Assembly: GCF_023913515.1 (NCBI RefSeq)
Contig: NZ_CP099393.1
Span: forward strand, 1 to 64,000
Length of the DNA stretch: 64,000 nucleotides
Direction of reading: 5' to 3'
Origin: Natronococcus sp. CG52
GTDB taxonomy: Archaea > Halobacteriota > Halobacteria > Halobacteriales > Natrialbaceae
This document shows positions 3,001 to 44,829 of this stretch, piece after piece. The position numbers and the translations under genes were made by a program. The first letter of the stretch is position 1, and each line of letters starts with the position of its first letter. A model generated the notes under the pieces. The model was not told where the DNA came from and ran no database searches. It was given only the letters and a program-made list of their open reading frames with translations.

Positions 3001-3324
3001 CCTGAAACCATCGAAGAGGACGGAACGTACGTCTACGACGGTGATAAAGGGGGCAGCGGGATCACCGTACTGCTGACCGAAGGTGCCGAGGACCCCGATG
3101 GGAAGTTCCAGCGCGCACTCGAACTTGTCGAAGAGGCGTTCGAATGTGATTGCGATGATGGATGTCCGTTCTGTGTGTTTCAGTACGGCTGTACCGAGCA
3201 CAACGATCCCCAGTCGTTCGATAAAGAGGCGTTCCAATCGCTATTGGATAATGGCCTCGAACTCGATTCAATTTCGACAACTGAACTCGGAGGGGAAACA
3301 ACTGCGAGAAAGATGGATGACTGA
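1..3324 (+). pseudogene. DpdJ-like DUF1998 superfamily 2 helicase, 5' end outside window, two frameshifts
   Basis: Helicase of the DUF1998 class; the N-terminal ATPase lobe lies left of the window, and coding runs in from base 3. Visible in order: a zinc knuckle (CDCG, then CESC) at 3-90, the motif SFSDSQSD near 375-400, the strand-switch motifs MELGVDIG near 1230 and YLQRVGRAGRKSG near 1305-1345, a second zinc knuckle CQQC near 1770, a third CLTC/CDSC near 2385-2445, and the DUF1998 end with YDGDKGGSG near 3040 and CDCDDGCPFC near 3150. The reading frame drops by one base near 761 (AGC TTC GTC) and again near 1626 (ACG TTC AG); each is repaired by adding one T. Its last codons overlap the PLD gene by 8 nt. 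Helicase+DUF1998 next to a PLD protein is known from DISARM (split drmA/drmB) and Dpd (dpdJ/dpdK); the dpdA gene downstream favours Dpd. The predicted role is DNA translocation for restriction. Confidence 0.75.
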
Positions 3325-5290: not shown

Positions 5291-5402
5291 TATATTATAT
5301 ATGCCTAAATGAATGGAGGGGGTAGTCGCATATATGAACATAGGTGAAGTGGGGAGATTCATATAGAAGAACGCGCAAACCTTGAGACGGTGAACACTAT
5401 CT

Positions 5403-7603
5403 GTGAGGTTCTACGTTCCTGAATGGGATGACAACGTCGATGCTTACTATGACTTCGAGCACGACGAGCACTCGGAGCTCGGGACCGAGGAGCGCGAGCA
5501 ACACTATATCTGGGATATTTTCGACTACGAAACAACCCCAATAGACGGCGTGCTCATTTCACGCGAACAGGTCGAAGAGAGCGCCACGAAATTCGATCAA
5601 CTCACATCCTATGGAGTCTACGACGAACGATCAGATCTCAATATCCCTGACTGGCTCCCGACGATCAGTGACTGCGGCGCCTGGGGCTACAAATCGCTCC
5701 CGTTCCCTCCCTACGACAACGACGAGATGCTGGCGTTCTACGAAGACCTCGGCGTCACAGTTGGCGTGACGATCGACCACCTAGTGCTCGGGTCTGGACA
5801 CGAGACCCGTCTCTATCTCGACAAACGCGCGTTCGCTGACTCCCCTCTCACGCCGAGTGACCTCCCCGAAGCGTTGACTGACGAAGTCGACGTCATGGTC
5901 GACGACTGGCCCACAGAGTGGCCGGACTACGTCGATGACTACGACCCGACGATATACGATGTATCCACCGTCGAGCCGTTCGAACAGGAAGATTTCGAGG
6001 GCGATCCGGCAGCAGTGCTCGAGCGCCTTGACGACGACCCCCGGGCCGTCTACCGAGACGACGACACGGAGTTCCGATACCAACTGACGCTCAACAACGC
6101 CGCGGAGATGAAGGAGTTGTACGACGCTAACAACTACTCCTTCCGGCTGATGGTCGCGATTCAGGGCTGGGATCCGACGTCGTACACGCGAGCAGCGGAT
6201 CAGGTACTCGACCTGGGCTATCAGTACGTCGGTATCGGCGGCGTCGCCGGGAGCAACGCTGGCAGAATTCGGGATATCGTTACCGGCGTCGGGAACGCGG
6301 TCAAAGAACACGAACGAGCCCGGAAGACGCGAGTCGATACACACGTGTTCGGGTTCGCGAAAACCGATGCGTTCGATGCGATCGGTCAAACCGGGATGAC
6401 GAGTTTCGACAGCGCGAGTATGCTCCGGTCGGCTTGGACCGGCGGTGACAACTACCACCTCGATAGCGAACGCCGCTACGACGCGCTTCGCGTCCGATTC
6501 GGCTCGAACAGGGATCCACTCGAGGAACAGATCGAAACCGCCCTCCGTGGACAGGAGTTGCTCCATTCGCTGCGAGCATTCGACGAGGATGAATCGATGT
6601 CCCAAGCGATCAGAGAGTGGGCCGCTGAGGCGGAAGACGCCCTCGACGAGTTGGCGTCCTACCTGAGAACCATCGCCACGACGACGAGTACGACCAGCGT
6701 CTACTTCGGGATGTTGAGGACCACTTCCGTGACCACTACGATCACGGTCGCGAACTGCGGGCGAGTTTCAGTCGCTCACTCCGAAAGCAGGTAATCAAAC
6801 TTCTTCGAGAGGACGACCCCGAATCCCCTGTCGAGTTCGAACAGTATCAAACGTTGATCGGGACTGCTCGAGAGAAATTTGAGGAGTTCCCTAGGATGGC
6901 AGAGACAATCGAACAAGACGAAGAGGAGATAGATGATGTTGCTACGTTCAACCAGATCAAAGAACTCGTTGAGGATTATGCGGACTGGATCGGCGATGAG
7001 CGGTTGCTCAAGGAATACGAGAAACTCCTCAAAGAAGAGCCATGGACGGAATGCGACTGTGAAATCTGTCGAGAATACGGCATCGAAGTCGCTATCTTCC
7101 GAGGGAACAATCGCAACCGTCGTCGAGGATTTCACAATACGAAACGGTTCTACGATCAGTTCCAGGAAGATCTCCCGAAAACACTTGTCGTCACACCAGC
7201 TACTGATGCGATCGCAAAAAAGAGCTCGATAGAGGGATATTTCCTTACCGAACACACAGACTTCTGGTCGAGCGTCCATGACCTACCGGTTGCCGAGGTT
7301 GGCGTGATAAGCGAAACGGGCGTTCACGAGTGGTGGGCGGACGCACCAGCGTCAGTTTCGCTCGATTCGGATGCCATGGCAGTATCCGTCGGCGAGTTCT
7401 GTGCACGATACCAGAATGTCTTCCTATACGATCCCGAGGAGACGATTCATCGTGATGTCGTCCAGAACATCGAACAACACGGCTGTGCCGTCGAGTCATA
7501 CGAGCGATCACAGGACCTTCGGGCGGCCGTTCTCGATCGACTGGGATATGACAGCGAGTTCGTGCCGGAATTTATGGTTCAAAAGGGGCTGATGGAGTTC
7601 TAA
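5403..7603 (+). pseudogene. dpdA: DpdA, DNA-guanine transglycosylase (TGT superfamily), one frameshift
   Basis: A TGT-superfamily enzyme that in bacterial Dpd systems exchanges guanine in DNA for preQ0. The GTG start gives the family-like opening RFYVPEWDDNVD. The segment SDCGAWGYKSLPFPPYD corresponds to the DSGGFQ substrate-binding loop of TGT, TIDHLVLGSGHE and YQYVGIGGVAGSNAG to core barrel strands, and MTSFDSASMLRS to the loop bearing the nucleophilic Asp. The C-terminal CDCEICREYG with a downstream H matches the TGT zinc site (C-x-C-x2-C...H, ~7055-7130). Frame 3 reads to ~6660 and frame 2 from ~6662 to the stop; adding one C in TACCTGAG restores a single protein of ~733 residues through EDALDELAS and RHDDEYDQRLL. 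The next gene starts 3 nt after the stop, so they are one transcript. If the break is real, the modification branch is dead. Confidence 0.85.
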
Positions 7604-7605
7604 TC

Positions 7606-8307
7606 ATGGACATACTCATCATCGATCAGTGTTCGAACAAGAAATCGTACCCAGACGAGAGCGCCGTCTTCGACGCGGCAGACATCGACAAGGCGGGTCT
7701 CGATACCCTTCGCGATCGTGAGGAGGCTGTCAGTCTGCCGGCACGAAAGCTCTATGGGGGGCGCCAGCAGCGGTACATTAGTGAAGCAACAGACTCCCTC
7801 CGCGCCGATCGGCATACCGTCGACCGCTATTTCATCAGTGCCGGATTCGGACTCGTCGAAGAGCGCGAGGAACTTCCGCCGTACGACGTGACCTTCGCAA
7901 AGATGACTGATAGCGAAATCGAATCCCGTTCTGCGTCACTACAGATTTCGGAGCGCACGCAGGAAGTGATCTCCGCCACCTCTTACGACGTTGTCTTTCT
8001 GGCACTTGGGAGGGATTACTATCAGGCCCTGGATGTGCCCGAGATCTTGGCTGCATTGCCCGAGACCTCGATCGGCGTGACCTTCAACCAGGAGGAGGTC
8101 GCAGATCGATACGAGAACGTTGTTTCGGTTCCCGCTCGGACCGACCAAGCGAAGGAACAGGGCACGATCGTCGTTGCGCTGAAGGGGACCTACCTGAAAA
8201 ACTTTGCAACCCGTCTCGACCCTGGTGGTGAACTCGAAACACCTGACGAAGTGGAATCAGCCTGTCTCTCTAAGCCGACCTCACAGCAGGATCTGTCTGA
8301 TTTCTAG
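7606..8307 (+). CDS. YaaA/DUF6884-fold protein, candidate DpdC counterpart
   Basis: 233 residues, starting 3 nt after the dpdA stop, so almost certainly co-transcribed and coupled to it. The N-terminal LIIDQCSNKKS is the Cys/Lys strand-loop typical of DUF6884/YaaA-like proteins. FISAGFGLVEEREELPPYDV matches the (L/I)SAxYGLv...PYd signature shared by YaaA (DUF328) and DUF6884. In Salmonella, DpdC is a DUF328-type protein needed to turn DNA-bound preQ0 into the amido form; family resemblance plus position beside dpdA suggest the same job here. That is inference. YaaA-fold proteins also act as DNA glycosylase-like or peroxide-stress proteins, so a base-processing role is the safe statement. No frameshift, signal peptide or membrane segment. 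Confidence 0.65.
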   Translation: MDILIIDQCSNKKSYPDESAVFDAADIDKAGLDTLRDREEAVSLPARKLYGGRQQRYISEATDSLRADRHTVDRYFISAGFGLVEEREELPPYDVTFAKMTDSEIESRSASLQISERTQEVISATSYDVVFLALGRDYYQALDVPEILAALPETSIGVTFNQEEVADRYENVVSVPARTDQAKEQGTIVVALKGTYLKNFATRLDPGGELETPDEVESACLSKPTSQQDLSDF

Positions 8308-8417
8308 ATCCTAACTCAGGTACTTTGTCCGTTCTCTCTATCTGTTCTAGATTAGATTTAAATATTGTAGTCTTAATATGCAAATTACTTTATTTCGGCC
8401 AACTGAGCTAAAACCCG

Positions 8418-9452
8418 ATGCTGTATCGACAGCAAGTGCTCGATCTTCCACATGGAGAACTGCATACCCCAGTTCTCTTTCCCGTCCGAAACCTTGGGAA
8501 GCGGTCGAGTGACAACACACCAGCATACGTAGACATGATCCCGGATCTCCCAACGGCGATGATCAACGCCCGTGCGATCAGAAACCGGGATCCAATGTGG
8601 GAGCGGTTGACTGATGGGGTGACGCTCAGAGAGGAGATGGGTGTTCCGGAGAACACGATCGTCTATGCCGATAGTGGTGGGTACGATTTCAGTCAGACAG
8701 CACCAGATACAACACCTCGAGAAACTCTCGAGACCCAACGGTTGTTCGATGCCGATATTTTTGGCACAGTAGACATTCCACTATCCAGAGAGAATCGGGC
8801 GGCAAAGAATCAACGTCGAATCGATCGAAGTGTTGAACTTGCGTTAGAAGCGAGCGATCGTCATAATGGGGATGAACTTCTGCTCGCAAGTGTTCACGGG
8901 TATGATCCGGAGACGATTCAAAACAGTATTCGATATCTAGAAATCCGAGGTGATTTCGATGGATATGCGCTAGGGAGTCTCGTCCCAATACGAACAGATT
9001 ACAAAAAAGTCACAAAACTCGTTTTGGCAGCCCGAACTGCGACGGAGAAACACCTCCACGTCTATGGGCTTGGCGGACTGGTCTATCAGCCCCTTTTGCT
9101 CTATCTTGGAGTGGATAGTTTCGATTCGTCTGCCTTCATTCGAAGCGCAGGCAATCGAAACTACTTGCTCCCCGGATTCGGCGGTGAAGAGCTGTGGAAT
9201 ATCGATGAGCTTGAATACCTCCCTTGTCCCTGTCCCGTCTGTGGGTCCCGAACACTCAACGATATCCGAGAGGATCGTGATGCGCTGGTTAAGCACAACC
9301 TTTGGGCACTGGCCGCGGAATTACGCCGATTTCGGTACGTCTCGGCTGCTGGCAAGGATATCGAGGACTATCTTGATCTCCGGTTCCAGGGCAACGAAGT
9401 AACACAACGAGCATACAGAACGGCCAAGCAGCAAGTTCGGAGGTTATCATGA
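8418..9452 (+). CDS. Second TGT-superfamily transglycosylase (short DpdA/TgtA paralogue)
   Basis: 344 residues with complete TGT landmarks: the N-terminal HGELHTPVLFPVRNLG (TGT consensus HG-x-I-x-TPxFMPV), DSGGYDFSQ (the DSGGFQ loop with its catalytic/base-binding Asp), the barrel strand LHVYGLGGL, DSFDSSAFIRSAG with the nucleophile Asp, and a zinc site CPCPVCGS with H further on. It lacks the PUA and extra C-terminal domains of archaeosine TGT (ArcTGT, >500 aa), so it is not the housekeeping tRNA enzyme. It overlaps the next gene by 4 nt (ATGA) and starts a three-gene operon with a winged-helix protein and an ATPase. The preceding 110 nt are AT-rich and carry a TTTAAATATT stretch near 8355-8365, suggesting its own promoter. 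A DNA substrate is inferred from the neighbouring dpdA. Confidence 0.75.
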   Translation: MLYRQQVLDLPHGELHTPVLFPVRNLGKRSSDNTPAYVDMIPDLPTAMINARAIRNRDPMWERLTDGVTLREEMGVPENTIVYADSGGYDFSQTAPDTTPRETLETQRLFDADIFGTVDIPLSRENRAAKNQRRIDRSVELALEASDRHNGDELLLASVHGYDPETIQNSIRYLEIRGDFDGYALGSLVPIRTDYKKVTKLVLAARTATEKHLHVYGLGGLVYQPLLLYLGVDSFDSSAFIRSAGNRNYLLPGFGGEELWNIDELEYLPCPCPVCGSRTLNDIREDRDALVKHNLWALAAELRRFRYVSAAGKDIEDYLDLRFQGNEVTQRAYRTAKQQVRRLS

Positions 9453-19685: not shown

Positions 19686-19826
19686 GAGCGCCAATCTCCA
19701 GTCAGCATTCTCGTTATGAAGGTTAGTCACTACTCGTACACCGTCGGTATTGGTGGAGCTATCGAATTGAACCGAGCAGCAACACCCACCACAATCTACT
19801 TTGCACTATGGATACTCTTGTTATCT

Positions 19827-20498
19827 ATGGATAATAGAAGTAGCCACAGTTCTGTTTCCATTCCGATACCCGTTCCAAACGAGGACGTTTTCAGATATAC
19901 TGCCTGCGGGCCAATTCTTTCTCTCTTAGTCGACACCCCGCATTCCTCGTTCGGAATTCGCGATCTCGGACGTGCAATTGACCGTCCTCACCGAAGTATC
20001 TCACTCGCCGTTGAAGACCTCGAGTCGCTGGGACTGGTAACCACCACAACAGAAGGTGGAAAGAAACTCGTTCAGATCAATCGCAATCGACTCACCAGCC
20101 CCGACGATCCTATCCTTCGAGTACCACAGGAAGAGTTTCGAGACCCCGTCCACAGCCTCCAAGAAAAAATTCTCGAGGAACTCGAGGACGTAGCGGGAAT
20201 CCTGCTCTTTGGAAGCGTCGCTCGAGGGAACGCAGACCGACGGAGCGACATCGATTGTTTCGTCTTAGTCGGCACGAACCGGGCAACCAATCAAAAGCGA
20301 GCTCACGAACTTGCCCAAGAGCTGGGCAGTCAACGATTCGACGGCGATCGGTACACCTTCGAAATACTAGTTGAATCCACCGAGTCGGCCGAACGACAAG
20401 CAGACCGCCTCCAAGAAATATTCGCAGACGGACTGACTCTATACGATACGGGACCGTTGAGCGACCTCAAGACAGAGGTGCTGGCCAATGGACGATAG
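19827..20498 (+). CDS. Winged-helix plus MNT nucleotidyltransferase antitoxin (MntA-type)
   Basis: 223 residues from the ATG at 19827; an earlier in-frame start at 19716 adds an unlikely 37-residue extension. Residues ~25-95 are a winged helix (SSFGIRDLGRAIDRPHRSIS). Residues ~120-220 are a minimal nucleotidyltransferase with GSVARGNADRRSDIDCFVL, the GS-x-ARG-x-AD-x2-SD-x-D active site. MNT antitoxins neutralise HEPN toxins, in some cases by AMPylating a Tyr. The 3' end overlaps the HEPN gene by 11 nt (20488-20498), the expected toxin-antitoxin coupling. The HTH fusion suggests it also represses its own promoter. Intact. Confidence 0.8.
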   Translation: MDNRSSHSSVSIPIPVPNEDVFRYTACGPILSLLVDTPHSSFGIRDLGRAIDRPHRSISLAVEDLESLGLVTTTTEGGKKLVQINRNRLTSPDDPILRVPQEEFRDPVHSLQEKILEELEDVAGILLFGSVARGNADRRSDIDCFVLVGTNRATNQKRAHELAQELGSQRFDGDRYTFEILVESTESAERQADRLQEIFADGLTLYDTGPLSDLKTEVLANGR

Positions 20499-20985
20499 CG
20501 ACGTCGACGCTGCGCTCGAAGCGGCTGAGAGAGCGTTCGAGGATACTCGTGACCAGTCACTTGAGACAGGACTCGACGTAACTGACGAGGCGCTCGTCCA
20601 ACTACGGAAAGCCTGCCGACTCCTCGAGGCCGCGACAACACTCCGTGAACGAAACGGCCACCACACCGTCGTTATCGAGACTTCGTTCGTCGCCATCGAA
20701 CGGAGCATTCAGTTCTACCTCATCCACCGCAATACTGCAGGCGGTGCAGACCTTCGGCATGATCACGCCGCAGTCTACGAACGAGCTGTAGAGATCAACC
20801 TGTTCAGCGAGTCGTTTGGAGACCGACTACTCGAGCTCTGGAAAACGAATCGGGCAGCGGTGTACTATCGGGAGGCTGCTGCGACCGCAGAACAAGCTGA
20901 TGCGATGCTCGAACTCGCAACTACCATCCACGAACACGTTCTCCGATTCTCGTCTGTTGGATACGAGTGTATCTGCAACCAATAG
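20488..20985 (+). CDS. HEPN-domain toxin partner of the MNT antitoxin
   Basis: 165 residues, all helical. It overlaps the nucleotidyltransferase gene by 11 nt. ATTLRERNGHHTVVIETSFVAI and ERSIQFYLIHRNTAGGADL, followed by ELWKTNRAAVYYREAAATAE, fit the four-helix HEPN bundle of haloarchaeal MNT-linked proteins. The canonical Rx4-6H RNase motif is not clearly placed in the last helices; R-x4-H occurs as RERNGH near residue 55 and ERSIQFYLIH has a longer spacing, so RNase activity is uncertain. YYREAAA may hold the Tyr modified by MNT partners. It ends 140 nt before the next feature. Confidence 0.75.
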   Translation: MDDSDVDAALEAAERAFEDTRDQSLETGLDVTDEALVQLRKACRLLEAATTLRERNGHHTVVIETSFVAIERSIQFYLIHRNTAGGADLRHDHAAVYERAVEINLFSESFGDRLLELWKTNRAAVYYREAAATAEQADAMLELATTIHEHVLRFSSVGYECICNQ

Positions 20986-25206: not shown

Positions 25207-28200
25207 ATGTCATTTAGAAGACTCATTGCTTGTTTTTCGCAGTGCTGATGGTGATGTCGTTAGTCACTACACCAGCTTTAGCAGGTTCACCAAGCGATCC
25301 TGCTCGCGATGAACAAGTCACGTCGACTCTTGGACAAGGTGCTAATGATGGTCCACCAGGAAATGGAAATGAACCGCCAGGCCACGAACGTGGAGCTGAT
25401 GCAAACGTTACTATTCCCACGATAGAGGAGAATACAACGGTCGAATTACTCTTAGATAGCCGAGATCAACTCGAGGAACTCGACATCGAAGACGAGGAGG
25501 CTGCACAAATTCGAAACGAAAGTATCGAAGCGATCGAGGCGTCAGCCGAGACGTATCGTGAGCAGGTATTTGCAGATTCCAAGGTCACCTTCGAACATCA
25601 GAACGATACCATAGCTGCTCTCGAGGAGTTGCACGAGGTCGTTACTGGGGACGACGAGCAGACCGTCGATCGTGCGAAAGCAAATGTTCTGGAAGCAAGC
25701 AACGTGAGCGCGCGTCTTGCGACGCTCAACGCGTATGAAACGGTCTACGAGTCTGAAGAGGAGTTCCGGAATCCTGGCCAACGACAAAGTGCCGGGAGTG
25801 GACTCGGCAACGCTGTAAACGCAATCGAGCGTGGTGATAACGCCGAAGCGACCGATGCGGTAACCCATTACCGCAACGCCTGGGAGCATGCGGAGCGGTC
25901 ACTCGACGTCGTCGAGAAGAACACTGATCCCGAACTCACGCTCACGCAGGGACCCGCATTCGAAGAGAATGACACAGTGACTACACCAGTCTACATTTCT
26001 CTCTCGGATGTTCGCCCGTATACGTACGAGAATGCCAAGGTGAGTATCGACGACGGCGACCCCAGAATCGTTGACTTCACAGCTGATCCGGTTGCAGGCG
26101 GTGTTGCTACAGGGAGCATTACGATCGAGTTCGATTCTGAACTCGAGAACCGGACGATCACCGTTGAAACCACCTCGACACGTGATTCCGATAGAAGTGT
26201 CACAGAGACACTCGAGATTCACGTCGACGAAGACGACATTATCTCCGAACGTCCCGATCCCGACGAGTACAACGAGATCTCGGTCACGGAATCCGATTCT
26301 GGTGTGACTGTCGGTGCAGGCGGAGACGGATTATGGGAGAATGACCTCTCGGTCACTGATAGGACACCTGATACGGACGACGTGTACCGTGCTGGACCGA
26401 TGGTACGCATCGAGAATCGAACCGCAATCAATCAAGCCGAGGTGACGATTCCGATAGAGGGTGCTGATCTGGATCGAGATGCCAACCTTTCGATCGTTAC
26501 TTGGGATCCACAGAGCGACGAGCCATGGACGCCTATCGAGACTGAAATCGACGAGGAGAACGGGACTGCAAGCGCCGAGGTCGATCACTTCTCGTTCTTC
26601 TCGGTGTTCTGGATTGGCGACTGGGAGGACCATACGAGTGATACGATCACGCTCACCGAGGACGATTTCACAGGCAACGATACGAATGTTGGTGACGGTG
26701 ATCGCGATTTCGTGAAGTCCGATTTCGTCTTTGTCATTGACGAAAGCGGTAGTATGAGCGGCGCCCCCATTCGAAATGCCCGAGAAGCCTCGAAACGGTT
26801 CGTTGGTGCACTCGAGGACGACGAACGGGGTGGACTCGTTGGTTATGCCTCGAGTGCGAGCCTAGATCATCCGCTCACACAGGATCACGACGCGTTGAAC
26901 GCGAGTATTAATAGACTCTCTGCAGGAGGTGGAACGAATACCGAAGCTGGATTACGTACTGGGCTCGATCACCTCGAGAAGAACGGCTGGGAGAACCGCT
27001 CGCAGGTGATGATCCTTCTGTCAGACGGTAAATCGAATAGTGGCTCCTACCCTGTACGAGCCGCCGAAGACGCAGCTGATCAGGGAGTCGAGATCAGCAC
27101 CGTCGGACTAGGCAATTCGATCGATGAGAACGAACTCCGGCAGATCGCCGCCGCTACTGGCGGGGATTTCTACCACGTCGAAGATGCCAGTGACCTGCCC
27201 GACACCTTCGATCGCGTTGCCGAGAATCAAACTGGGCCCGAACTAAAGGATACCAATGGTGACGGGATCCCCAACGCAGTCGCCGAAATGGACCTGCGCA
27301 TGCCGACCGGTGGTGACGGCATCGCAGGCACTCCCCTCAATCTCGATCCACTTCGAACGGATACTAGCGGTGACGGCTTGCTCGACAACGAGACCGTCGA
27401 CATCAATTACCGAGTGTTCGAGGAAAACAACGAAACGAAACTCGAGGCACAGGTCACGAATGCGATTGCTCATCCCGCCCGATATGACACCGCCAACAAT
27501 GGCCTATCAGACTACGAGGAGGTCGAGATATGGGAGACTGATCCGATGCTTGCCGATACTTCCGGGGATGGGTTTATCGATTCCGTCGATCCAGAACCGC
27601 TCGACAAAACGTTCCCTCCGGATGTTCAATTTAATTCGCAGGGATGGTTCGAACGAGAACTGGTCGTCGAAGCTCGGCACGACAACGGAATCGAATCGAT
27701 CGACGTAGAAAAGTACGTTAACCCGCTCCACCGCAGCGCTCAATGGCAGGATGCATCGTTGAAGGATGAATATGTTGATGCTGGTTGGACAGTCAATGAG
27801 TTCCAGATGCGGGATGAACGCAGGCTCGCCACGACGAAACCCGACGAACTCGAAATTACTGTTGCCGCAGAGAATGACTACGAAGTGATCCTCGAGTTCG
27901 ATAGGGAAACCAGTGAACTCTCAGTATCCACTGCATATCCCGTTGCGTCGAGACAGGTAAAAAAACGGAGCCTCGGTGTTATCCCTGTCGTTGGTACTGC
28001 CGTAGCCACAGGGCTTCTCGCATATGACGTCGGGAAATACGGGTATGGAGCGCTCACTGCTAATACTGTTAGCGGAGAGCAAAATGCCGAAGACTTCGTA
28101 CACCACATTCCACCGACGCCAAACGAAGATAAATGGGAGACGCCCGAGGGCGTCGAGATATCGCTTCCAAGTGGGGCCGCCTTCGAAAGCGATGTTCATG

Positions 28201-29336
28201 ACGGTCATGAGCGCAAGCACGGCTGGGAACAAATCCCCGAGACACCGGGTATCGATCAGCCCGACGATGTCGGCGAAATCGTCGAAAACAATGATCCGAT
28301 CGATATCGATGGCCCATTTGACTTGATAATCGGAGAGACAAATGGTCACGAACTAATCTTCTGGATCTACGAAGGCACACTAGTCTTCGCCCAGGAAACG
28401 TTCGAAAAAGAGGAGGTCGCCGAGGAATCCAGTGAGGAAATTAACGAAGAGCGAACAGGAGAAGAGCAGGTCACCGAAGAAGAAATTGAAGACACTATTG
28501 AAGAGGAGCCGGACCAGGTCCTCGATAACGACCCGTATCACAGGTACGAAATCTATCACCTCGTTGCAAAGGGTGTCCAAGTCGTCATTCGAACAACGGG
28601 TGAGAAGATAGTCGACTACTTCGTCGAAGACGTCGAACAAGAACCTCGCTGCATACTCGCCGAAGAGGATATCGACATGACGGTTCAGGAGACCGAACGA
28701 GGGGAATTTGTTGCCTCTTCGAGCGAATACACGTCGTTCCTCGGAACGTTCGAACGGACAGCCAATCCAGTAGAGACTGAGCTTCGGTGTGTCGATGATC
28801 CAGAAGCAGTGATCCAAACGTACGCCGACGACCCGACCGACATCACTGACGGCAGTCTCGGCGAGAACGTCAGCGTCGAGTTCGTTGACGAGCGCGGACT
28901 CGACCTAGAGTGGCCCGAGGATGGCTTCGACGAGGGTGACGCTACCGAAATTGGACCGGACGTCGTTGCCTACGACGAAAGCAGTGATGAGTGGCTCATC
29001 ATCGAGGCAAAAACGACGACCAACACCGAGGCCATTGGAAAGGATCTGCTGGAGACCGATGCCTACGAGGGAGATGCACAGCTCCATGATGCGTGGATCC
29101 GGAATAGTCTTGAAAAGCTAGAAGATGAAGGAAAAATCGATTCAGAAATCGTCGATGAGATTGATTTCGCGCTCACCAGTGGAACCGTTAGTAAGGAACT
29201 CGTGCTCGTAAAAGATGTTGAGGGAGCAAGTCACAGAACGTTACGAGATCCACAAAACAATGACACAGACATTAGCACCGAAGACGTTGCAGGGATTGAC
29301 AAGGCAACTATCGTCGAATTAGCTGCAAACGAATAG
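25207..29336 (+). CDS. Secreted VWA / thrombospondin-3-repeat protein with C-terminal PD-(D/E)XK-like domain (candidate polymorphic toxin)
   Basis: About 1,375 residues. The body is open from 25230; the true start is probably ATG 25207 (MSFRRLIAC), one base out of frame at a T5 run (25233-25237); a sixth T gives a Sec signal MSFRRLIACFFAVLMVMSL ending TPALAG. Order: coiled/helical N-region, beta domains, VWA domain with MIDAS residues DESGSMSG, GGGTNTEAG and LLSDGKSNSG (~residues 495-670), Ca-binding TSP3-like repeats DTNGDGIPN, DTSGDGLLD, DTSGDGFIDS (~residues 675-790), a hydrophobic hinge VIPVVGTAVATGLLAYDVG, a Glu-rich stretch (~1055-1090), and a terminal domain with GPDVVAYDESS followed by EWLIIEAKTT, a D...EAK nuclease-like signature. 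The architecture resembles exported polymorphic toxins; the gene 4 nt downstream would be immunity. Alternatively an adhesin with a protein-binding end. Confidence 0.7.
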
Positions 29337-33349: not shown

Positions 33350-33843
33350 CGGTTCTACTCCCCTAAGCCTTTATTCTGGTCAATCCGAACCGTGTGCCTA
33401 CTGGCGGCATCTAGACCGAACGGAAGCGAGCCGTCCTCCTTGTTCTTTGTCGGCGTTTCCGATTCGGGGCGATGCCGAACTTCGAAGCATCGATCGTCGA
33501 GGTCCACCGCTCACACAGTCCCGCGGCGCAACAACGTGTACCATTCGAGCGCGAGGACGACGTGAGCCCGAGACGCGTACTCGAATTTGGCGAAGGACTC
33601 GAGGATTGCCTAGGCGTGATCGCGTTAGAGCATCACGTCACGAACATTCTTCATGGATTGTGTTCATGAATGAACCTCATTAGTGAATAGAATGGAGTGC
33701 CAGTTCGGGATTCACAGGCGGTCGAGGCGGATGCCCCGACCTTTGAGGGCGGAGAGGAAGCTGACACTTGGGAAGAAACCCACGCAGCAAAAACAATCTG
33801 TCCTCCGATCATTAAGTAAGTACAGACAATAATGTGAAACACA
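33350..33843. other. Gene-poor stretch 5' of tnpB
   Basis: Contains an unconvincing 65-codon plus-strand frame at 33472-33669 (ASIVEVHRSHSPAAQQ ... LGVIALEHHVTNIL), which may be a gene fragment. The last ~180 bases should include the left end of the IS element, but I cannot mark it exactly. No TnpA (Y1 transposase) gene is present. Confidence 0.4.
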
Positions 33844-35061
33844 GTGAAGTACCGTCGTACCGCCGTTATCAAGCTCGACACGCCCGACGGAGCCGACCCG
33901 CTCCTCCAAGAGACTGTCGAGCAGTTCAAACACTGCGCCAACACCGCGAGCGAGTGGTGCTGGCACGGCGACGACGGCTACCATGTCACCTCGAAAGCCA
34001 AAGCCGAACGAGCCCTCTACGACCAACTCAAAGACGAAACCGACCTGACCGCGAATCTCGTCCAGAAAGGCATCCGTAGAGCGGTCGAGGCCGTCAAAAG
34101 TGGCGTCGAACGCCTCAACCGTGGAGAAAACACCTCGCAACCCTATTTCTCGGCAGACAGCGCGGTGTACGACAAGCGAAGCGCGACGTTCCACCGCGAC
34201 CGCGTATCCCTCTCCACCATAGACGGACGCATCGAGTGTGACTACATCCTCCCCGACGACTCGGAGACACCGCCGACCAAATACGTCTCCGACGAGGACT
34301 TCGAGTTTCGGATGGCTCACCTGCAGTACTACGACAACGACTGGTACCTCCACGCTTCGATGCGAAAAGTCGAGGCTGACGAGGAGATACCTGAATCCGA
34401 GTCCAAGCACAGTACAGTCCTTGGTGTGGATTTGGGCGTCAACAACCTCGCGGTTGCTTCAACGGGCCGATTCTGGTCGGCAGACGAGATCAACCACTGG
34501 CGTCGAGAATACGAGAAGCGCCGTGGGTCGCTCCAGCGGTGTGGCTCTCGTTACGCCCACGAGAACATCGAAGCCGTTGGGCGGAAAGAGTACAGGCGAT
34601 TCGAGATACATCTGCACACGCTGGCGAACGAACTCATTGAGGAAGCCGTCGAGAACGACTGCTCGCACATCGTCTTCGAGGACTTAACGTACATCCGCGA
34701 GAACATCCCCGAAGCGACGTGGCAACATGTATGGGCGTTCCGACGCCTCTACGGGTACGTTGAGTACAAGGCCGATGAGTATGGCGTCGAAGTGGTGCGG
34801 GTTGACCCTCGGAACACGTCGAACAACGCTTCGACGTGTGAGTTTACCCACGATAACAATCGGTCGGGAGAGGCGTTCGAGTGCCAAAAGTATAGGTACG
34901 AGAATCACGCCGATTACAATGCTGCGAAGAACATCGGATTGCAGTATCTCCGTCGTCGGCAAAATGCAGACGATGGAGGCGCACCCGTAGACGTGCGCTT
35001 GAATCGCGGGACGGTGAACGTGAGTGGGGAGTACGTGCCCCCTGCCTCTGCTGAGGCATAG
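33844..35061 (+). CDS. tnpB: TnpB, IS200/IS605-family RNA-guided endonuclease, altered zinc finger
   Basis: 405 residues from GTG 33844. RuvC acidic residues are present: VLGVDLGVNNLAVAS (Asp I), HIVFEDLTYIRENIP (Glu II), NHADYNAAKNIGLQ (Asp III). The zinc ribbon before Asp III is damaged: the first pair reads C-E-F-T and the second C-Q-K-Y, so two of four expected Cys are lost. TnpB cuts DNA guided by an omega RNA made from the element's right end. No tnpA is nearby, so the copy cannot transpose by itself. The C-terminal ~30 codons overlap the expected omega RNA scaffold region. Confidence 0.85.
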   Translation: MKYRRTAVIKLDTPDGADPLLQETVEQFKHCANTASEWCWHGDDGYHVTSKAKAERALYDQLKDETDLTANLVQKGIRRAVEAVKSGVERLNRGENTSQPYFSADSAVYDKRSATFHRDRVSLSTIDGRIECDYILPDDSETPPTKYVSDEDFEFRMAHLQYYDNDWYLHASMRKVEADEEIPESESKHSTVLGVDLGVNNLAVASTGRFWSADEINHWRREYEKRRGSLQRCGSRYAHENIEAVGRKEYRRFEIHLHTLANELIEEAVENDCSHIVFEDLTYIRENIPEATWQHVWAFRRLYGYVEYKADEYGVEVVRVDPRNTSNNASTCEFTHDNNRSGEAFECQKYRYENHADYNAAKNIGLQYLRRRQNADDGGAPVDVRLNRGTVNVSGEYVPPASAEA

Positions 35062-35115
35062 AACGGGAGTCCACGCGAAAGCCTCGGGGCTTGACCCCGA
35101 GGCAGTTTACATACC
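35040..35115 (+). ncRNA. Putative omega RNA 3' end / IS right end with hairpin
   Basis: Right after the tnpB stop, a perfect 10-bp stem (35081-35103, GCCTCGGGG...CCCCGAGGC) is followed by AGTTTACA, the typical end of haloarchaeal IS1341-type elements. In TnpB systems the RNA scaffold ends at the right end and the guide is the next ~16-20 bases (from about 35112). RNA boundaries are inferred. Confidence 0.5.
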
Positions 35116-35136
35116 ACCGCTTCATGTCTGTGAGCG

Positions 35137-35302
35137 GTTCGTAATCGCTAGGGACCTAGATTCGGGGTATCAACCACAACGCTGCCCATTGCTGCTACCG
35201 AGCAGAACCGAAAGGAGACTCGAGGAAGCGCTTTTCGTAATCGCACGTCAGGAGATGGGCGAAAGTCCAACGACGAACTTCGGCCGGATTATTACTCTTT
35301 AG
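35137..35302 (+). pseudogene. Possible gene tail next to the IS right end
   Basis: About 54 codons, FVIARDLDSGYQPQRCPLLL then RTERRLEEALFVIARQEMG and a final TTNFGRIITL with stop. Protein-like but unrecognised. It may be the 3' part of a gene into which the TnpB element inserted. Confidence 0.3.
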
Positions 35303-35443: not shown

Positions 35444-35578
35444 CGCATCGACGACGTCATCGCAGCTGGCGATCTTAAGGGCGGTCAGGTCGACAGTGAT
35501 GATGACGACGACGCAGGCGGCCCGCCTGCCGGTAGCCCCGGCGGCGGAATGGGCGGCGGTATGGGAGGTATGATATGA
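35444..35578 (+). pseudogene. C-terminal fragment of a thermosome (group II chaperonin) subunit
   Basis: 44 codons: RIDDVIAAGDLKGGQ, an Asp run, then PGGGMGGGMGGMI and stop. RIDDVIAAGDL is the conserved last strand of archaeal thermosome subunits, and the Gly-Met tail is diagnostic. The upstream ~500 codons are absent; before it lies the IS left-end repeat. It marks the join between the mobile zone and the orderly GC-rich region. A functional thermosome must be encoded elsewhere. Confidence 0.8.
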
Positions 35579-35947
35579 ATTCCTGAAAGGAAGGAGGGAG
35601 AATAAATAAGGTATGCTACTACGCTTAATAATACGTCAAGGTAAACGAGGGCTAAAATCCCCTCCGAAGACTACTGAACCTGTGCAAATCGACAGAGACG
35701 CATTTTTGATTAGGCCGGTAGTGTCGCTCTGAACACCCTTTGTGTGCGAAATCTGACCTAGCGCAATCATCATATAATACCCTCCACAATTAGGAAACTC
35801 TTGGCCTCGAGAGCAACGAAGGATGACGGTCAACGTCCGAATCAGCACATCTCTCTCCGAGAACTCGAGCCAGTCGCCACAACTGCGCACTGATGTGTTT
35901 GAATGTGGACAAATCTTCATGGTGCTCGAGAGTATACCGCTTGTAAG

Positions 35948-37111
35948 ATGGTTCGACCCGCGATGGCGGTGCTGACGGAGTACGATGTTACCCCCACACG
36001 CGGGTTCCTCCCCGAGTCGGATCCCCTGCTCGCGTTCGAAACCAGCGAATACGATCGGGCGATAGCGAACTTCCTGCGCGAGTACGACCGTCTCGGGACC
36101 GAACTCCCCGGTCGACTCGAGGACGGGACCCTTCAGCCGGCCGTTCGCGACCTTGAGCCAGCGCCGGACGGCCTTTTCGAAGTGCTCTCCGAGCGCGAAA
36201 CGGTCCGACTGTGCCTTCTCAGCGGCTTCTTCGCGAGCGCGTACGTCCACGAGATCGGTGCAGACCCCGTCGACCGCCTTCCGGCGGGCGTGGCCGTGCC
36301 GCTGTATCGAACCTCGCGGCGGTTCGGCCGAAAACCGATCCTCTCGTACGACATGCTTTGCCTGCACAACTGGCAGCGGCGCGACCCTGACGTCGGCTTC
36401 GACGTCGACAATCTGGACACCGTCCAACAGTTCACGTCGCTGTCCGACGAGCGGTGGTTCGTCGCGATTCACGTCGCGATCGAAGCCAGGGCCGGGCCCG
36501 CGCTGACCACGTGTGCGCGGGCCCAGCGAGCCGTCCGCGACGACGATCCCGACGCACTGCTCCCGGCTCTCGAGACGATCGGCGACTCGCTCGAGGAGCA
36601 AACCGCGATCATGGGCCGGATGACCGAGAACAACGACCCCGAGGCGTTCGCCCGGAAGTACCGGCCGTACTACAACGGGTTCGACGAAATCGTCTACGAG
36701 GGCGTCGGTGAACTCGAGGGCACCCCGCGAACGTTCCGGGGTGGGTCCGGCGCCCAGAGTTCGGTGCTGCCGTCGATCGACGCCGCGCTCGGGATCGACC
36801 ACGCCGCCACGGAGCTGATTGACAAACTGCTCGACATGCGCAGCTACATGCCGGAGGCCCACCGTACCGTCATCGCCGCGTTCGACGAGGGCCCCGACGT
36901 CGGTGCCTTCGTGGCCGACAACGGTCGCGAGGAACTCTGCGCCGAGTACAATCGCTGCATGGACGAACTCGGCGCCTTCCGCGAGGTCCACTTCGGACAG
37001 GTCGCCCAGTACATCAAGGAGGTGACCGGCGACACCACCGGCACCGGCGGCACCGACTACATGCAGTTCCTCCCGATGCTGAAGGAAGAGACCGAAGCCC
37101 AGAAGATCTGA
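35948..37111 (+). CDS. Indoleamine/tryptophan 2,3-dioxygenase (IDO family)
   Basis: 387 residues; heme dioxygenase opening the indole ring of tryptophan to N-formylkynurenine. IDO marks: FRGGSGAQSSVLPSIDAALG (substrate/heme pocket), MRSYMPEAHRTVIAAF with the proximal heme His, and GTGGTDYMQFLPMLKEE (the GTGGT loop). Length fits IDO (~400) rather than TDO (~280). ATG at 35948 chosen; another at 35963. Convergent with kynureninase, with kynurenine and anthranilate genes all around, so the first step of a tryptophan-degradation block. Confidence 0.85.
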   Translation: MVRPAMAVLTEYDVTPTRGFLPESDPLLAFETSEYDRAIANFLREYDRLGTELPGRLEDGTLQPAVRDLEPAPDGLFEVLSERETVRLCLLSGFFASAYVHEIGADPVDRLPAGVAVPLYRTSRRFGRKPILSYDMLCLHNWQRRDPDVGFDVDNLDTVQQFTSLSDERWFVAIHVAIEARAGPALTTCARAQRAVRDDDPDALLPALETIGDSLEEQTAIMGRMTENNDPEAFARKYRPYYNGFDEIVYEGVGELEGTPRTFRGGSGAQSSVLPSIDAALGIDHAATELIDKLLDMRSYMPEAHRTVIAAFDEGPDVGAFVADNGREELCAEYNRCMDELGAFREVHFGQVAQYIKEVTGDTTGTGGTDYMQFLPMLKEETEAQKI

Positions 37112-37160
37112 GTCGATCTCGAGACGCTAACCCCGGTCTCTTCTCGAACCGTTTCGGTCG

Positions 37161-38486
37161 TTACGTTACCTCGCCCTGCGTCTCGTACCGTTCGTAGGTT
37201 TGCTCGTCGACGATCTCGCACAGTAGGTCGACAACTTCGCGCACGTCCTCGAACCCGACGTACAGCGGCGCCGGACAGACGCGGATGACGTTCGGCGGCC
37301 GGAAGTCCACGACGACGCCGCGATCCCGCAAGGCCTGGCTGATCCGTTCGGCTTCGGGGTGCTCGAGCGCGACGTGACCGCCGCGTCGGTCGGGATCTCG
37401 CGGTGTCCCCGCCGCGAAGCCGCGATCGGCGAGGCGCTCGTCGACGAGGAAGAGGAGGTACGACGTGAGCGTGAGGGACTTCTCGCGAATCGCCTCGATG
37501 CCGGCATCCGTGACCAGTTCGATCGAGCCGAACAACGGCGCCGCGCTGAAGACGGGAACCGTCCCGATCTGCCAGGCGCCGGCGCTGTCGGCCGGCGTGA
37601 ACTCGAGATTCAGCTCGAACTGCGTCTCCTTGTCGTGGCCCCACCAGCCCGCGAGCGCCGGCGTCGCGTCGAAGTGGCGCTCGTTGACGTACAGGCCGGC
37701 GATCGCTCCCGGCCCGGCGTTGAGGTACTTGTAGCTACACCAGACCGCGAAGTCGACGCCGATATCGGAGAGTTCGTGGGGAACGGCACCGATCGAATGC
37801 GCGAGGTCGAACCCCGCGATGATCCCCCGCTCGTGGGCCGCCTCGGTAATCCGCTCGAGGTCGAACAGTTGGCCGCTGCGGTAGAGGACGGAGGGCATGA
37901 AGACGATGCCGACGTCGCGGTCGTCCATCGCGGCGACGACGTCCTCGGTCTCGATCGTCCGGCCGTCGCGGCTTTCGACCGCGTGGAGGTGCTCGTCCGG
38001 ATCGAGTCCCCGCTGGCGAAGCTGGGCGCGGATCGCGTAGTGATCGGTGGGGAAGTCGAGTTCGTTGACCAGCACGCCGCGGGGGTCGTCCGGCCCCAAG
38101 TGATCGAGGAACGTGCCGATCAGCGTGTGAATGTTGACGGTCGTCGAGTTCCCGACGACGACCTCTTCCTCGCGGGCGCCCAACAGCGGTGCGAGTTCGT
38201 CGCCCAGTCGCTCGCCGTACCAGAACCACGGCGGCTCGGCCTCGGTCCAGCCTCGGATACCGAGTTCGCGCCACTGATCGATCGCCCGGTTCAGGGTCCG
38301 CTCGGCGTCCTCTGAGATTGGGCCGAGCGAGTTGCCGTCCATGTAGTGGTCGTCGGGGACGTCGAAGCGATCCCGGAGCGTCGCGAGCGGGTCGGCGTCG
38401 TCGCGCTCGCGGGCGTACTCGAGGCCGGTTCGGTGGTCGCCGGTGCGGCGTTCGGCGTGCGCGTCGTCGTCCGCGTTCGAGTCCAT
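37161..38486 (-). CDS. kynU: Kynureninase
   Basis: 441 residues, PLP-dependent. Cleaves kynurenine to anthranilate and alanine. Marks: YMDGNSLGPISEDAERTL, VVVGNSTTVNIHTLIGTF, GFDLAHSIGAVPHELSDIGV, and the Schiff-base Lys in WCSYKYLNAGPGAIAGLYVN; C-terminal domain ends PNVIRVCPAPLYVGFEDV. Full length. Convergent with the dioxygenase (49 nt between ends) and divergent from the hydrolase gene at 38654 across a 167-nt gap. With those two it makes tryptophan to anthranilate. Confidence 0.92.
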   Translation of the reverse strand: MDSNADDDAHAERRTGDHRTGLEYARERDDADPLATLRDRFDVPDDHYMDGNSLGPISEDAERTLNRAIDQWRELGIRGWTEAEPPWFWYGERLGDELAPLLGAREEEVVVGNSTTVNIHTLIGTFLDHLGPDDPRGVLVNELDFPTDHYAIRAQLRQRGLDPDEHLHAVESRDGRTIETEDVVAAMDDRDVGIVFMPSVLYRSGQLFDLERITEAAHERGIIAGFDLAHSIGAVPHELSDIGVDFAVWCSYKYLNAGPGAIAGLYVNERHFDATPALAGWWGHDKETQFELNLEFTPADSAGAWQIGTVPVFSAAPLFGSIELVTDAGIEAIREKSLTLTSYLLFLVDERLADRGFAAGTPRDPDRRGGHVALEHPEAERISQALRDRGVVVDFRPPNVIRVCPAPLYVGFEDVREVVDLLCEIVDEQTYERYETQGEVT

Positions 38487-44130: not shown

Positions 44131-44829
44131 TCAATCGCGGAGATACACCTCCTTGATCCGATCGCTCTCGAGCAGTTCGTCCGCCGGCGCCTCCGTCGCG
44201 ATACGGCCGTTCTCGAGCAGGTACGCCCGGTCCGCGAGCTCGAGCGCCTCGTGGACGTGTTGCTCAGTCAGCAGGATCGTCGTGTCCTCGCTGATTGCCT
44301 CGACCTTCTCGAAGACCCGTCTCGCGAGCTGCGGTGCGAGTCCCACCGAGAGCTCGTCGAGGGCCAGGATCTCGGGCTCGGCCATCAGCCCGCGGCCGAC
44401 CGCGAGCATCTGCTGTTCGCCGCCGCTCAGCGTCCCTGCTGGCTGATCGCTGCGTTCCTCGAGGACGGGAAACAGGTCGTACACCTCCCGGCGATTGTCC
44501 TCGAGCCGCGCCCGTCTGGTGTACGCGCCCATCTCGAGGTTCTCACTGACGGTCATCTCGTGGAAGAGATTTCGCTCCTCGGAGACGTGAACGAAGCCGA
44601 GGTCGACGATCTCGTGGGGTGTGAGCGTCGATGCGTCGCGGCCGAACAGCTCGATCGTTCCGCTATCGACGGGGAGGAGCCCGGACAGCGTCTTCAGCAG
44701 CGTCGTCTTGCCCGCGCCGTTCGGGCCGACGAGCGCGACGACCCGGTCGTCCGTCGTGATCTCGACGGAGACGTCCCAGAGCACCTGAAGTTCGTCGTAG
44801 GAGACGTCGATGTCCTCGGCCCGGATCAT
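44131..44829 (-). CDS. HAAT ABC transporter ATPase, LivF type
   Basis: 232 residues. Walker A LVGPNGAGKTTLLKT, signature LSGGEQQMLAVGRGLM, Walker B PEILALDELSVGLAP, switch TILLTEQHVHEALELADRAY. LivF-type subunits pair with LivG beneath two permeases. Its ATG overlaps the LivG stop by 4 nt (44826-44829). Last gene of the four-gene transport operon running leftward from 47496. Confidence 0.88.
   Translation of the reverse strand: MIRAEDIDVSYDELQVLWDVSVEITTDDRVVALVGPNGAGKTTLLKTLSGLLPVDSGTIELFGRDASTLTPHEIVDLGFVHVSEERNLFHEMTVSENLEMGAYTRRARLEDNRREVYDLFPVLEERSDQPAGTLSGGEQQMLAVGRGLMAEPEILALDELSVGLAPQLARRVFEKVEAISEDTTILLTEQHVHEALELADRAYLLENGRIATEAPADELLESDRIKEVYLRD

What the first reader, a model, noticed from the sequence alone, without database searches (positions are those of the whole stretch)
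33844..35115. TnpB with intact RuvC residues but half its zinc-ribbon cysteines lost
DLGVNN, FEDLTY and ADYNAAKN remain, while C-x2-C pairs have become C-E-F-T and C-Q-K-Y. There is no TnpA. The 3' hairpin for the omega RNA is intact. This could be a domesticated or decaying RNA-guided nuclease in a defence-rich zone; the guide would be the bases following ~35111.
Basis: partly seen in the sequence, partly recalled or inferred. Interest (0 to 1): 0.5.

Follow-up and report, generated by a model that had tools for sequence, protein, structure and literature searches.

The report
Transposon nuclease with broken zinc ribbon
This is one copy of a common jumping gene of salt-loving archaea whose RNA-guided DNA cutter has lost two of the four cysteines that hold a structural zinc, most likely by chance mutation on the way to becoming inactive rather than by taking on a new job.

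Summary
At 33844-35061 (+) lies a 405-aa TnpB with RuvC residues D196/E279/D357 intact and two of four zinc-ribbon cysteines gone: C1 is Ala329 (C332, its partner, remains) and C4 is Tyr350. It sits in a complete TnpB-only IS200/IS605-type element: TAM TTCAC 33711-33715, body 33716-35110, guide from 35111. A near-empty site in a same-genus genome fixes the left junction and the first 15 guide bases (14/15 match). No relative shares this pair of losses: of 124 distinct relatives 118 read CCCC. But single losses recur in other copies by other changes (C4S twice, C1F once, one deletion of the first knuckle), while RuvC residues are kept in 118 of 118 where all three were covered. The first loss here looks like one event: six clustered substitutions equal the reverse complement of the loop of a 10-bp inverted repeat seen in relatives (a template-switch spacer inversion). 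The omega-RNA end is intact, no TnpA was found in the genome. Best reading: a partly inactivated TnpB in a trapped element, one of several such copies. Domestication is not supported but not excluded. 'Defence-rich' is weak: a Dpd-like cluster lies about 25 kb away.

The parts
33499..33715 (+). left flank: matches the near-empty site L153 (same-genus genome G392) up to and including TTCAC
   Evidence: blastn 79.7% over 222 columns; alignment with the two flanks joined in a script
33711..33715 (+). TTCAC, transposon-adjacent motif (TAM) / left cleavage motif
   Evidence: TTCACAG found in 45 of 51 examined 5' flanks of relatives of at least 80% identity; same TTCAC in the near-empty site
33716..35110 (+). 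TnpB-only IS200/IS605-type (IS1341-like) element body
   Evidence: boundaries shared with relatives; near-empty-site junction
33734..33754 (+). left-end hairpin, mispaired compared with the family consensus but not an outlier
   Evidence: left end (first 60 nt) sixth weakest of 30 distinct by DNA folding energy, -7.6 against a median of -11.4 kcal/mol
33844..35061 (+). tnpB, 405 aa, GTG start; RuvC D196, E279, D357 present
34814..34839 (+). 10-bp perfect inverted repeat with 6-nt loop; loop inverted relative to relatives, giving K327N, R328N, C329A
   Evidence: the central 8 nt equal the reverse complement of those of 4 of 45 relatives (1 mismatch for 33, 2 for 8); direct comparison gives 5-7 mismatches in all 45
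34828..34839 (+). codons 329-332: Ala329 (first zinc cysteine lost) and Cys332 (second, kept)
34882..34893 (+). codons 347-350: Cys347 kept, Tyr350 (fourth zinc cysteine lost)
34950..35110 (+). omega-RNA scaffold (3' end of tnpB plus right-end hairpins)
   Evidence: fold z -3.71 for 34950-35130; weak full-model match to Rfam RF02657 sot2652 at 34943-35124, 15.2 bits, E 0.5, below the cut-off of 61
35081..35103 (+). terminal right-end hairpin GCCTCGGGG-CTTGA-CCCCGAGGC
   Evidence: DNA folding energy of the last 40 nt equals the family median, -12.7 kcal/mol, n 43
35111..35130 (+). guide segment (first 20 nt after the element)
   Evidence: 14 of the first 15 positions match the near-empty site next to TTCAC
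35111..35293 (+). right flank: relic of a GIY-YIG-type gene with frame breaks and stops, the insertion target
   Evidence: two frames align to residues 88-121 and 111-147 of the ORF in L152 (ORF); GIY-YIG name from the PLSDB annotation under a related match

Best explanation
A TnpB-only IS200/IS605-type element inserted 3' of a TTCAC motif in a GIY-YIG gene relic on a plasmid-like replicon of a Natronococcus-type haloarchaeon. Its omega-RNA end, guide and RuvC active site are still those of a working RNA-guided nuclease (shown by sequence). Private mutations then removed one ligand from each zinc knuckle: a template-switch inversion of a hairpin loop (K327N/R328N/C329A) and C350Y, which needs one G-to-A change from a TGT codon (one more, silent-type, change from TGC), beside G333E. 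With no intact knuckle left, the TNB zinc ribbon probably cannot hold zinc, so target cleavage, and with it the return of the element to an emptied donor site, is probably weak or lost (inferred). With no Y1 transposase found in the genome, the element is probably immobile (inferred). This is an early stage of ordinary decay, of which other copies show other examples.
For: No one of 124 distinct relatives shares the pair of losses; 118 read CCCC. Other single copies have lost ribbon cysteines by different changes (L175, L189, L179, L232), and 29 of 114 distinct relatives of at least 70% identity carry a stop or align only in part (some of these are contig ends). Among 175 columns invariant in 45 relatives the window departs at 7, and 4 of these 7 fall in the ribbon, which has 20 of the 175 (Fisher p 0.0036; optimistic, since R328N and C329A are one event); the median sequence departs at 1. 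C1 loss is explained by one mutational event, of a kind described in yeast genes (PMC8604942, passages). ISDra2 TnpB coordinates zinc by four conserved Cys (PMC10097598, passages), and in a mutational scan of it 'most ZnF mutations [were] depleted' (PMC11844463, section 7). No TnpA found.
Against: The frame is fully open, the catalytic triad and omega-RNA are intact, and median pairwise dN/dS is 0.110 (rank 6 of 46), so most of its history was under constraint. L065, with all four Cys, has more private changes (9), so the count alone does not prove decay. RuvC residues are kept in 118 of 118 distinct relatives where all three were covered, while Cys losses recur: that could also mean that the ribbon is partly dispensable. 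The left-end hairpin is weak but not an outlier. Activity was not measured; the one structure prediction was of too low confidence to use (mean pLDDT 46.8).
Confidence: 0.78

Rival explanations
1. Domesticated RNA-guided DNA binder: after losing the zinc ribbon the protein still binds omega-RNA and target but no longer cuts, and is kept as a repressor or roadblock, by analogy with the TldR proteins.
For: Open frame, intact omega-RNA and guide, low pairwise dN/dS. The GIY-YIG target relic has relatives in other genomes.
Against: The pair of Cys changes is private to this copy. RuvC triad intact, the reverse of a nuclease-dead repressor. The guide's first 16 nt match perfectly only its own flank in the genome, and the 7 of 15 other near matches whose flanks were read lack TTCAC. 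No regulated neighbour is apparent.
Confidence: 0.06
2. Still an active TnpB: the zinc site is rewired (for example C332, H336, C347, H355) or dispensable at molar salt, and the element keeps itself by cutting emptied sites.
For: H336 is invariant in the 45 relatives of at least 80% identity and H355 nearly invariant in a 20-row alignment, and both remain. Active site and guide unit intact. Other copies lose ribbon Cys while every fully covered copy keeps its RuvC residues; with five Cys substitutions and no RuvC one this is not significant by itself.
Against: Both knuckles hit, with G333E and G351R beside them. ZnF mutations mostly depleted in the ISDra2 scan. Both His are ordinary family residues, so nothing new was gained; L175, another copy with a lost Cys, has Tyr in place of H336.
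Confidence: 0.13
3. Sequencing or assembly error in the zinc-ribbon codons.
For: Single assembly; contig end overlaps its start with a few differences.
Against: The overlap copy, up to base 34854, carries the same first-knuckle sequence, though from the same assembly and not covering Tyr350. A six-base cluster equal to an inverted loop is not a typical read error.
Confidence: 0.02

Closest known systems
Haloarchaeal TnpB-only IS200/IS605 elements with sotRNA/omega-RNA (PMC12558985, abstract and passages; IS1341-like label recalled)
   Same: many 81-89% identical proteins at nearly full length across Halobacteria, same TTCAC left motif, same right-end hairpins and TTTAC end
   Different: this copy alone, of 124 distinct relatives examined, has lost one cysteine from each knuckle
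Other decayed copies of the same family: L175 and L189 (C4S), L179 (C1F fragment), L232 (first knuckle deleted)
   Same: zinc-ribbon ligands lost, RuvC residues kept where covered
   Different: one knuckle only, by other changes; L175 and L189 also carry insertions of about 20 residues
ISDra2 TnpB (solved structures)
   Same: RuvC/TNB architecture; equivalents of D191, E278, D361 present (PMC10097598, passages; equivalence by motif order)
   Different: CCCC zinc finger there; A..C / C..Y here; the TAM read here is TTCAC, not TTGAT
TldR, RNA-guided transcription factors (PMC13418256, search listing with start of abstract; descent from TnpB and RuvC loss recalled)
   Same: TnpB-derived protein with a changed nuclease half and a guide RNA
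   Different: TldRs lose RuvC residues and are conserved as a family; here RuvC is intact and the change is private
Inverted-repeat spacer inversion by template switching (PMC8604942, passages)
   Same: perfect inverted repeat with 10-bp arms, spacer replaced by its reverse complement, multi-codon change
   Different: an archaeal element rather than yeast genes; 6 substitutions and 3 residues at once

Membership tests
TnpB (IS200/IS605 family RNA-guided endonuclease) | family profile match over the curated cut-off | tested here: met
   NF040570 145.4 bits against 100; PF07282 65.1 against 26.3; PF01385 35.3 against 30.5
TnpB (IS200/IS605 family RNA-guided endonuclease) | RuvC D-E-D catalytic residues | tested here: met
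   D196, E279, D357
TnpB (IS200/IS605 family RNA-guided endonuclease) | CCCC zinc ribbon in the TNB domain | tested here: not met
   A329, C332, C347, Y350. It is a degenerate member by descent; the claim weakened is that it works, not that it descends from TnpB
TnpB (IS200/IS605 family RNA-guided endonuclease) | omega-RNA overlapping the 3' end of the gene with the guide right outside the element | tested here: met
   conserved right end and near-empty-site match; transcription itself not testable here
TnpB (IS200/IS605 family RNA-guided endonuclease) | RNA-guided cleavage | not testable with these tools
   needs an assay
TldR-like domesticated TnpB | loss of RuvC catalytic residues (recalled) | tested here: not met
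   triad intact
TldR-like domesticated TnpB | relatives with the same change | tested here: not met
   0 of 124 distinct relatives share the A..C / C..Y pair; the codon pattern for C-x-x-Y had one match without mismatch in 125 family genomes, the window
TldR-like domesticated TnpB | conservation of the changed gene at the same locus | tested here: inconclusive
   no orthologous occupied locus found in searches of 125 family genomes and of plasmids with the flanks
Haloarchaeal sotRNA RF02657 | Rfam gathering score | tested here: not met
   15.2 bits against 61, E 0.5, though aligned over model positions 1-187

The most novel reading that the evidence does not exclude
A TnpB that binds omega-RNA and target but, lacking its zinc ribbon, does not cut, with RuvC left intact: a binding-only form reached by a different route from TldR, kept on a plasmid and able to mark or block copies of its GIY-YIG target. 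The recurrence of ribbon-Cys losses beside unbroken RuvC residues in other copies would then mean that the ribbon is the part TnpB elements can shed.
Probability: 0.06. Interest if true: 0.55.

Novelty: new member of a known kind. Interest (0 to 1): 0.22.

Why it matters
It gives a clean natural snapshot of a TnpB losing function: guide, RNA and active site intact, zinc ribbon broken by one hairpin-loop inversion plus a point change. With the other Cys-deficient copies found here (L175, L189) it would serve as a natural test of whether the zinc ribbon is needed in a halophilic TnpB. As biology of the host it is ordinary transposon decay.

Tried and rejected
Uniqueness of Cys loss: my first census (48 of 48 at 80% identity or more, 82 of 84 overall, CCCC) was too favourable, because the loci were mostly the best matches. 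Checking the two-mismatch pattern hits and fetching 53 further copies listed changed it: at 80% or more 63 of 66 CCCC, 2 CCCS, 1 FCCC; leaving out loci brought in by the pattern, 57 of 58. Second genomic copy: rejected, the contig end overlaps its start (99.8-99.97% in the stretches compared; about 34.85 kb implied). Same C-x-x-Y codons elsewhere: of 20 pattern-hit loci examined 8 are TnpB relatives and none reads Tyr at C4; G174 is not TnpB. Other genomic targets of the guide: 16 places at up to 3 mismatches in 16 nt against 35 for the reversed control, so chance. Relatives in viral contigs: none confirmed. Left-end hairpin decay as proof of immobility: rejected because 5 of 30 distinct left ends are weaker; a two-sequence comparison had looked more striking. 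Elevated dN/dS: not found. Rfam at gathering score: no hit in the window. Orthologous empty site with both long flanks: not found; L153 covers the left flank and only 15 nt of the right. Structure: mean pLDDT 46.8, pTM 0.29, ribbon under 50, so no fold search was made. Literature: searches on TnpB zinc fingers, domestication and haloarchaeal TnpB listed no paper, by title or start of abstract, on natural TnpBs without a zinc ribbon; most papers were seen as listings only.

Full report
WHAT IS THERE. The window is C3:1-64000 of a three-contig, 4.74-Mb genome. One genome of the same genus code (G205) has hits at the same record positions as Natronococcus occultus SP4 NC_019976.1 (taxonomy), so the host is taken as a Natronococcus-type haloarchaeon of the Natrialbaceae; that is an inference. 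C3 is 378,493 bases and its end repeats its start from base 343,633 on in the stretches compared, as for a circular replicon of about 343.6 kb; the second tnpB 'copy' at its end is that overlap.

THE GENE. ORF 33844-35061 (+) encodes 405 aa and matches the TnpB family models and solved Cas12f/TnpB-like chains. D196, E279 and D357 are in place. In relatives the zinc ribbon reads C-S-T-C ... C-Q-x-C; here it reads A329-S-T-C332 ... C347-Q-K-Y350.

ARE THE LOSSES SHARED? The first census looked clean: 103 loci with the ribbon aligned, 84 distinct, 82 of 84 CCCC and 48 of 48 at 80% identity or more. These came from 392 genomes of the order (309 with a match at E 1e-60 or better, at most 30 loci returned), 9 of the genus and a scan of one genome for each of 84,980 species (75 loci), so they were biased to the best matches. 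Fetching pattern hits and 53 further copies gave 164 loci, 124 distinct, 118 CCCC. At 80% or more: 63 of 66, with L175 and L189 CCCS and the fragment L179 FCCC. Below: L232 lacks 44 residues including the first knuckle, in an open frame; L091 and L111 contain stops, and the apparent Tyr of L111 comes from a gapped alignment. L175 and L189 are 89% identical in DNA but closer to different intact copies. None has losses in both knuckles, except what the gapped L111 row suggests, and none has Ala329 or, outside that row, Tyr350. All 118 distinct proteins with the three RuvC positions covered read DED. A codon pattern for C-x-x-Y over 125 family genomes matched without mismatch only in the window.

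HOW THE LOSSES HERE AROSE. Codons 327-329 carry six substitutions against the nearest loop forms. They fall on the loop of a perfect 10-bp inverted repeat, 34814-34839. The central 8 nt equal the reverse complement of the same 8 nt in 4 of 45 relatives, differ from it by one base in 33 and by two in 8, whereas the direct comparison differs by 5-7 in all 45; 24 of 200,000 random 8-mers match any observed inverted segment exactly. The arms have 8-10 of 10 complementary pairs in 41 of 45 relatives. A 15-nt stretch over the window's loop occurs verbatim on the other strand of L046 (with its duplicates L023 and L130) and of L229. So Cys1 was most likely lost with K327N and R328N in one spacer inversion, a known outcome of template switching between inverted repeats; [quoted passage not shown] The test was made after the pattern was noticed. 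G333E and C350Y each contain a G-to-A change; C350Y needs only that from TGT, a codon some relatives have. G351R also occurs in L016.

IS THE GENE DECAYING? Of 175 columns invariant in the 45 other sequences, the window departs at 7, four of them in the ribbon (20 columns; Fisher p 0.0036, optimistic because two are one event); the median sequence departs at 1, L065 at 9. Median pairwise dN/dS is 0.110, rank 6 of 46: long constraint, then a local loss. The sister on an ordinary tree, with the ribbon columns left out, is L058 of Natrinema gelatinilyticum (SH-aLRT 97), which keeps CCCC. The right end differs at 1 of 63 near-invariant columns, folds well (z -3.71) and keeps the consensus helices but for one G-G mispair. 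The left-end hairpin is sixth weakest of 30. A structure prediction was unusable (mean pLDDT 46.8).

THE ELEMENT AND ITS GUIDE. In relatives of at least 80% identity, TTCACAG opens 45 of 51 examined left ends and TTTAC closes 48 of 50 right ends, with 46 distinct 20-nt guides among those 48, so most are separate insertions. In genome G392 the left flank (79.7% over 222 columns) runs through TTCAC straight into ATACCACCGCTTTAT, 14 of 15 matching the window's guide, after which the two diverge. The right flank is a GIY-YIG gene relic. In the own genome the guide's first 16 nt match perfectly only at its own flank; the 7 of 15 other near matches whose context was read lack TTCAC. No Y1 transposase was found, although the same search rings in 5 of 14 control genomes, Haloferax volcanii among them.

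SURROUNDINGS. PADLOC was run on 30 window proteins. DpdA-like (two ORFs, 5403-7600) and DpdC-like (7606-8304) genes, a TGT-family gene (8418-9449), a PLD-domain protein (3083-5287) and a helicase-domain protein (866-2080) suggest a Dpd-type DNA modification cluster about 25 kb from tnpB. Nearer are a nucleotidyltransferase pair with candidate-defence matches (19716-20982) and an ATPase-like ORF matching mad3 (44131-44829). Next to tnpB are a PH-domain protein, a dehydrogenase, a prephenate dehydratase, indoleamine dioxygenase and kynureninase.

MECHANISM. Shown: element boundaries, guide, triad, private pair of Cys losses, no detected TnpA. Inferred: zinc binding and cleavage are impaired. Support is the four-Cys zinc site of ISDra2 TnpB (PMC10097598, passages) and the depletion of most ZnF mutants in a mutational scan (PMC11844463, section 7). 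The proposed role of TnpB, cutting the emptied donor joint so that repair restores the element, is from PMC8612924 (passages). A binding-only or rewired protein is not excluded; after the corrected census I moved these two readings up slightly (the binding-only form from 0.05 to 0.06, the rewired one from 0.12 to 0.13) and the main one down to 0.78.

Noticed in passing
L175 (G414:C1:1839900-1842000) and L189 (G221:C1:2454530-2455800): Two further open TnpB copies with the fourth zinc cysteine changed to Ser, apparently independently, each also with an insertion of about 20 residues; L175 also has Tyr for the conserved His336.
   Followed up: partly
L232 (G329:C1:3972400-3973560): TnpB copy with an in-frame deletion of 44 residues that removes the first zinc knuckle.
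   Followed up: partly
window 866-9449: Dpd-like DNA modification cluster: DpdA matches split over two ORFs (5403-6791, 6854-7600), DpdC-like 7606-8304, TGT-family 8418-9449, PLD and helicase genes. The split DpdA may be a broken gene.
   Followed up: partly
C3 343633-378493 against window 1-34854: The contig end repeats its start at 99.8-99.97% identity in the stretches compared: an untrimmed circular replicon of about 343.6 kb.
   Followed up: yes
window 35444-35578: Fragment of a thermosome (thsA-like) C-terminus ending in a GGM-rich tail, without the rest of the gene in view.
   Followed up: no
window 35903-38486: Indoleamine 2,3-dioxygenase next to a convergent kynureninase, with similar DNA on plasmids of Natronosalvus halobius and Natronococcus sp. 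AD-5.
   Followed up: no
window 25230-29336: A 1368-aa VWA-domain protein beside a 253-aa protein without a Pfam match.
   Followed up: no
L044 and L045: Nearly identical element copies with nearly identical near flanks in Natrinema pallidum and Haloglomus irregulare, suggesting recent transfer of a larger segment.
   Followed up: no
L041, L046, L051, L052, L054, L068, L102, L033: Relatives with a longer stretch inserted in the right-end hairpin.
   Followed up: no
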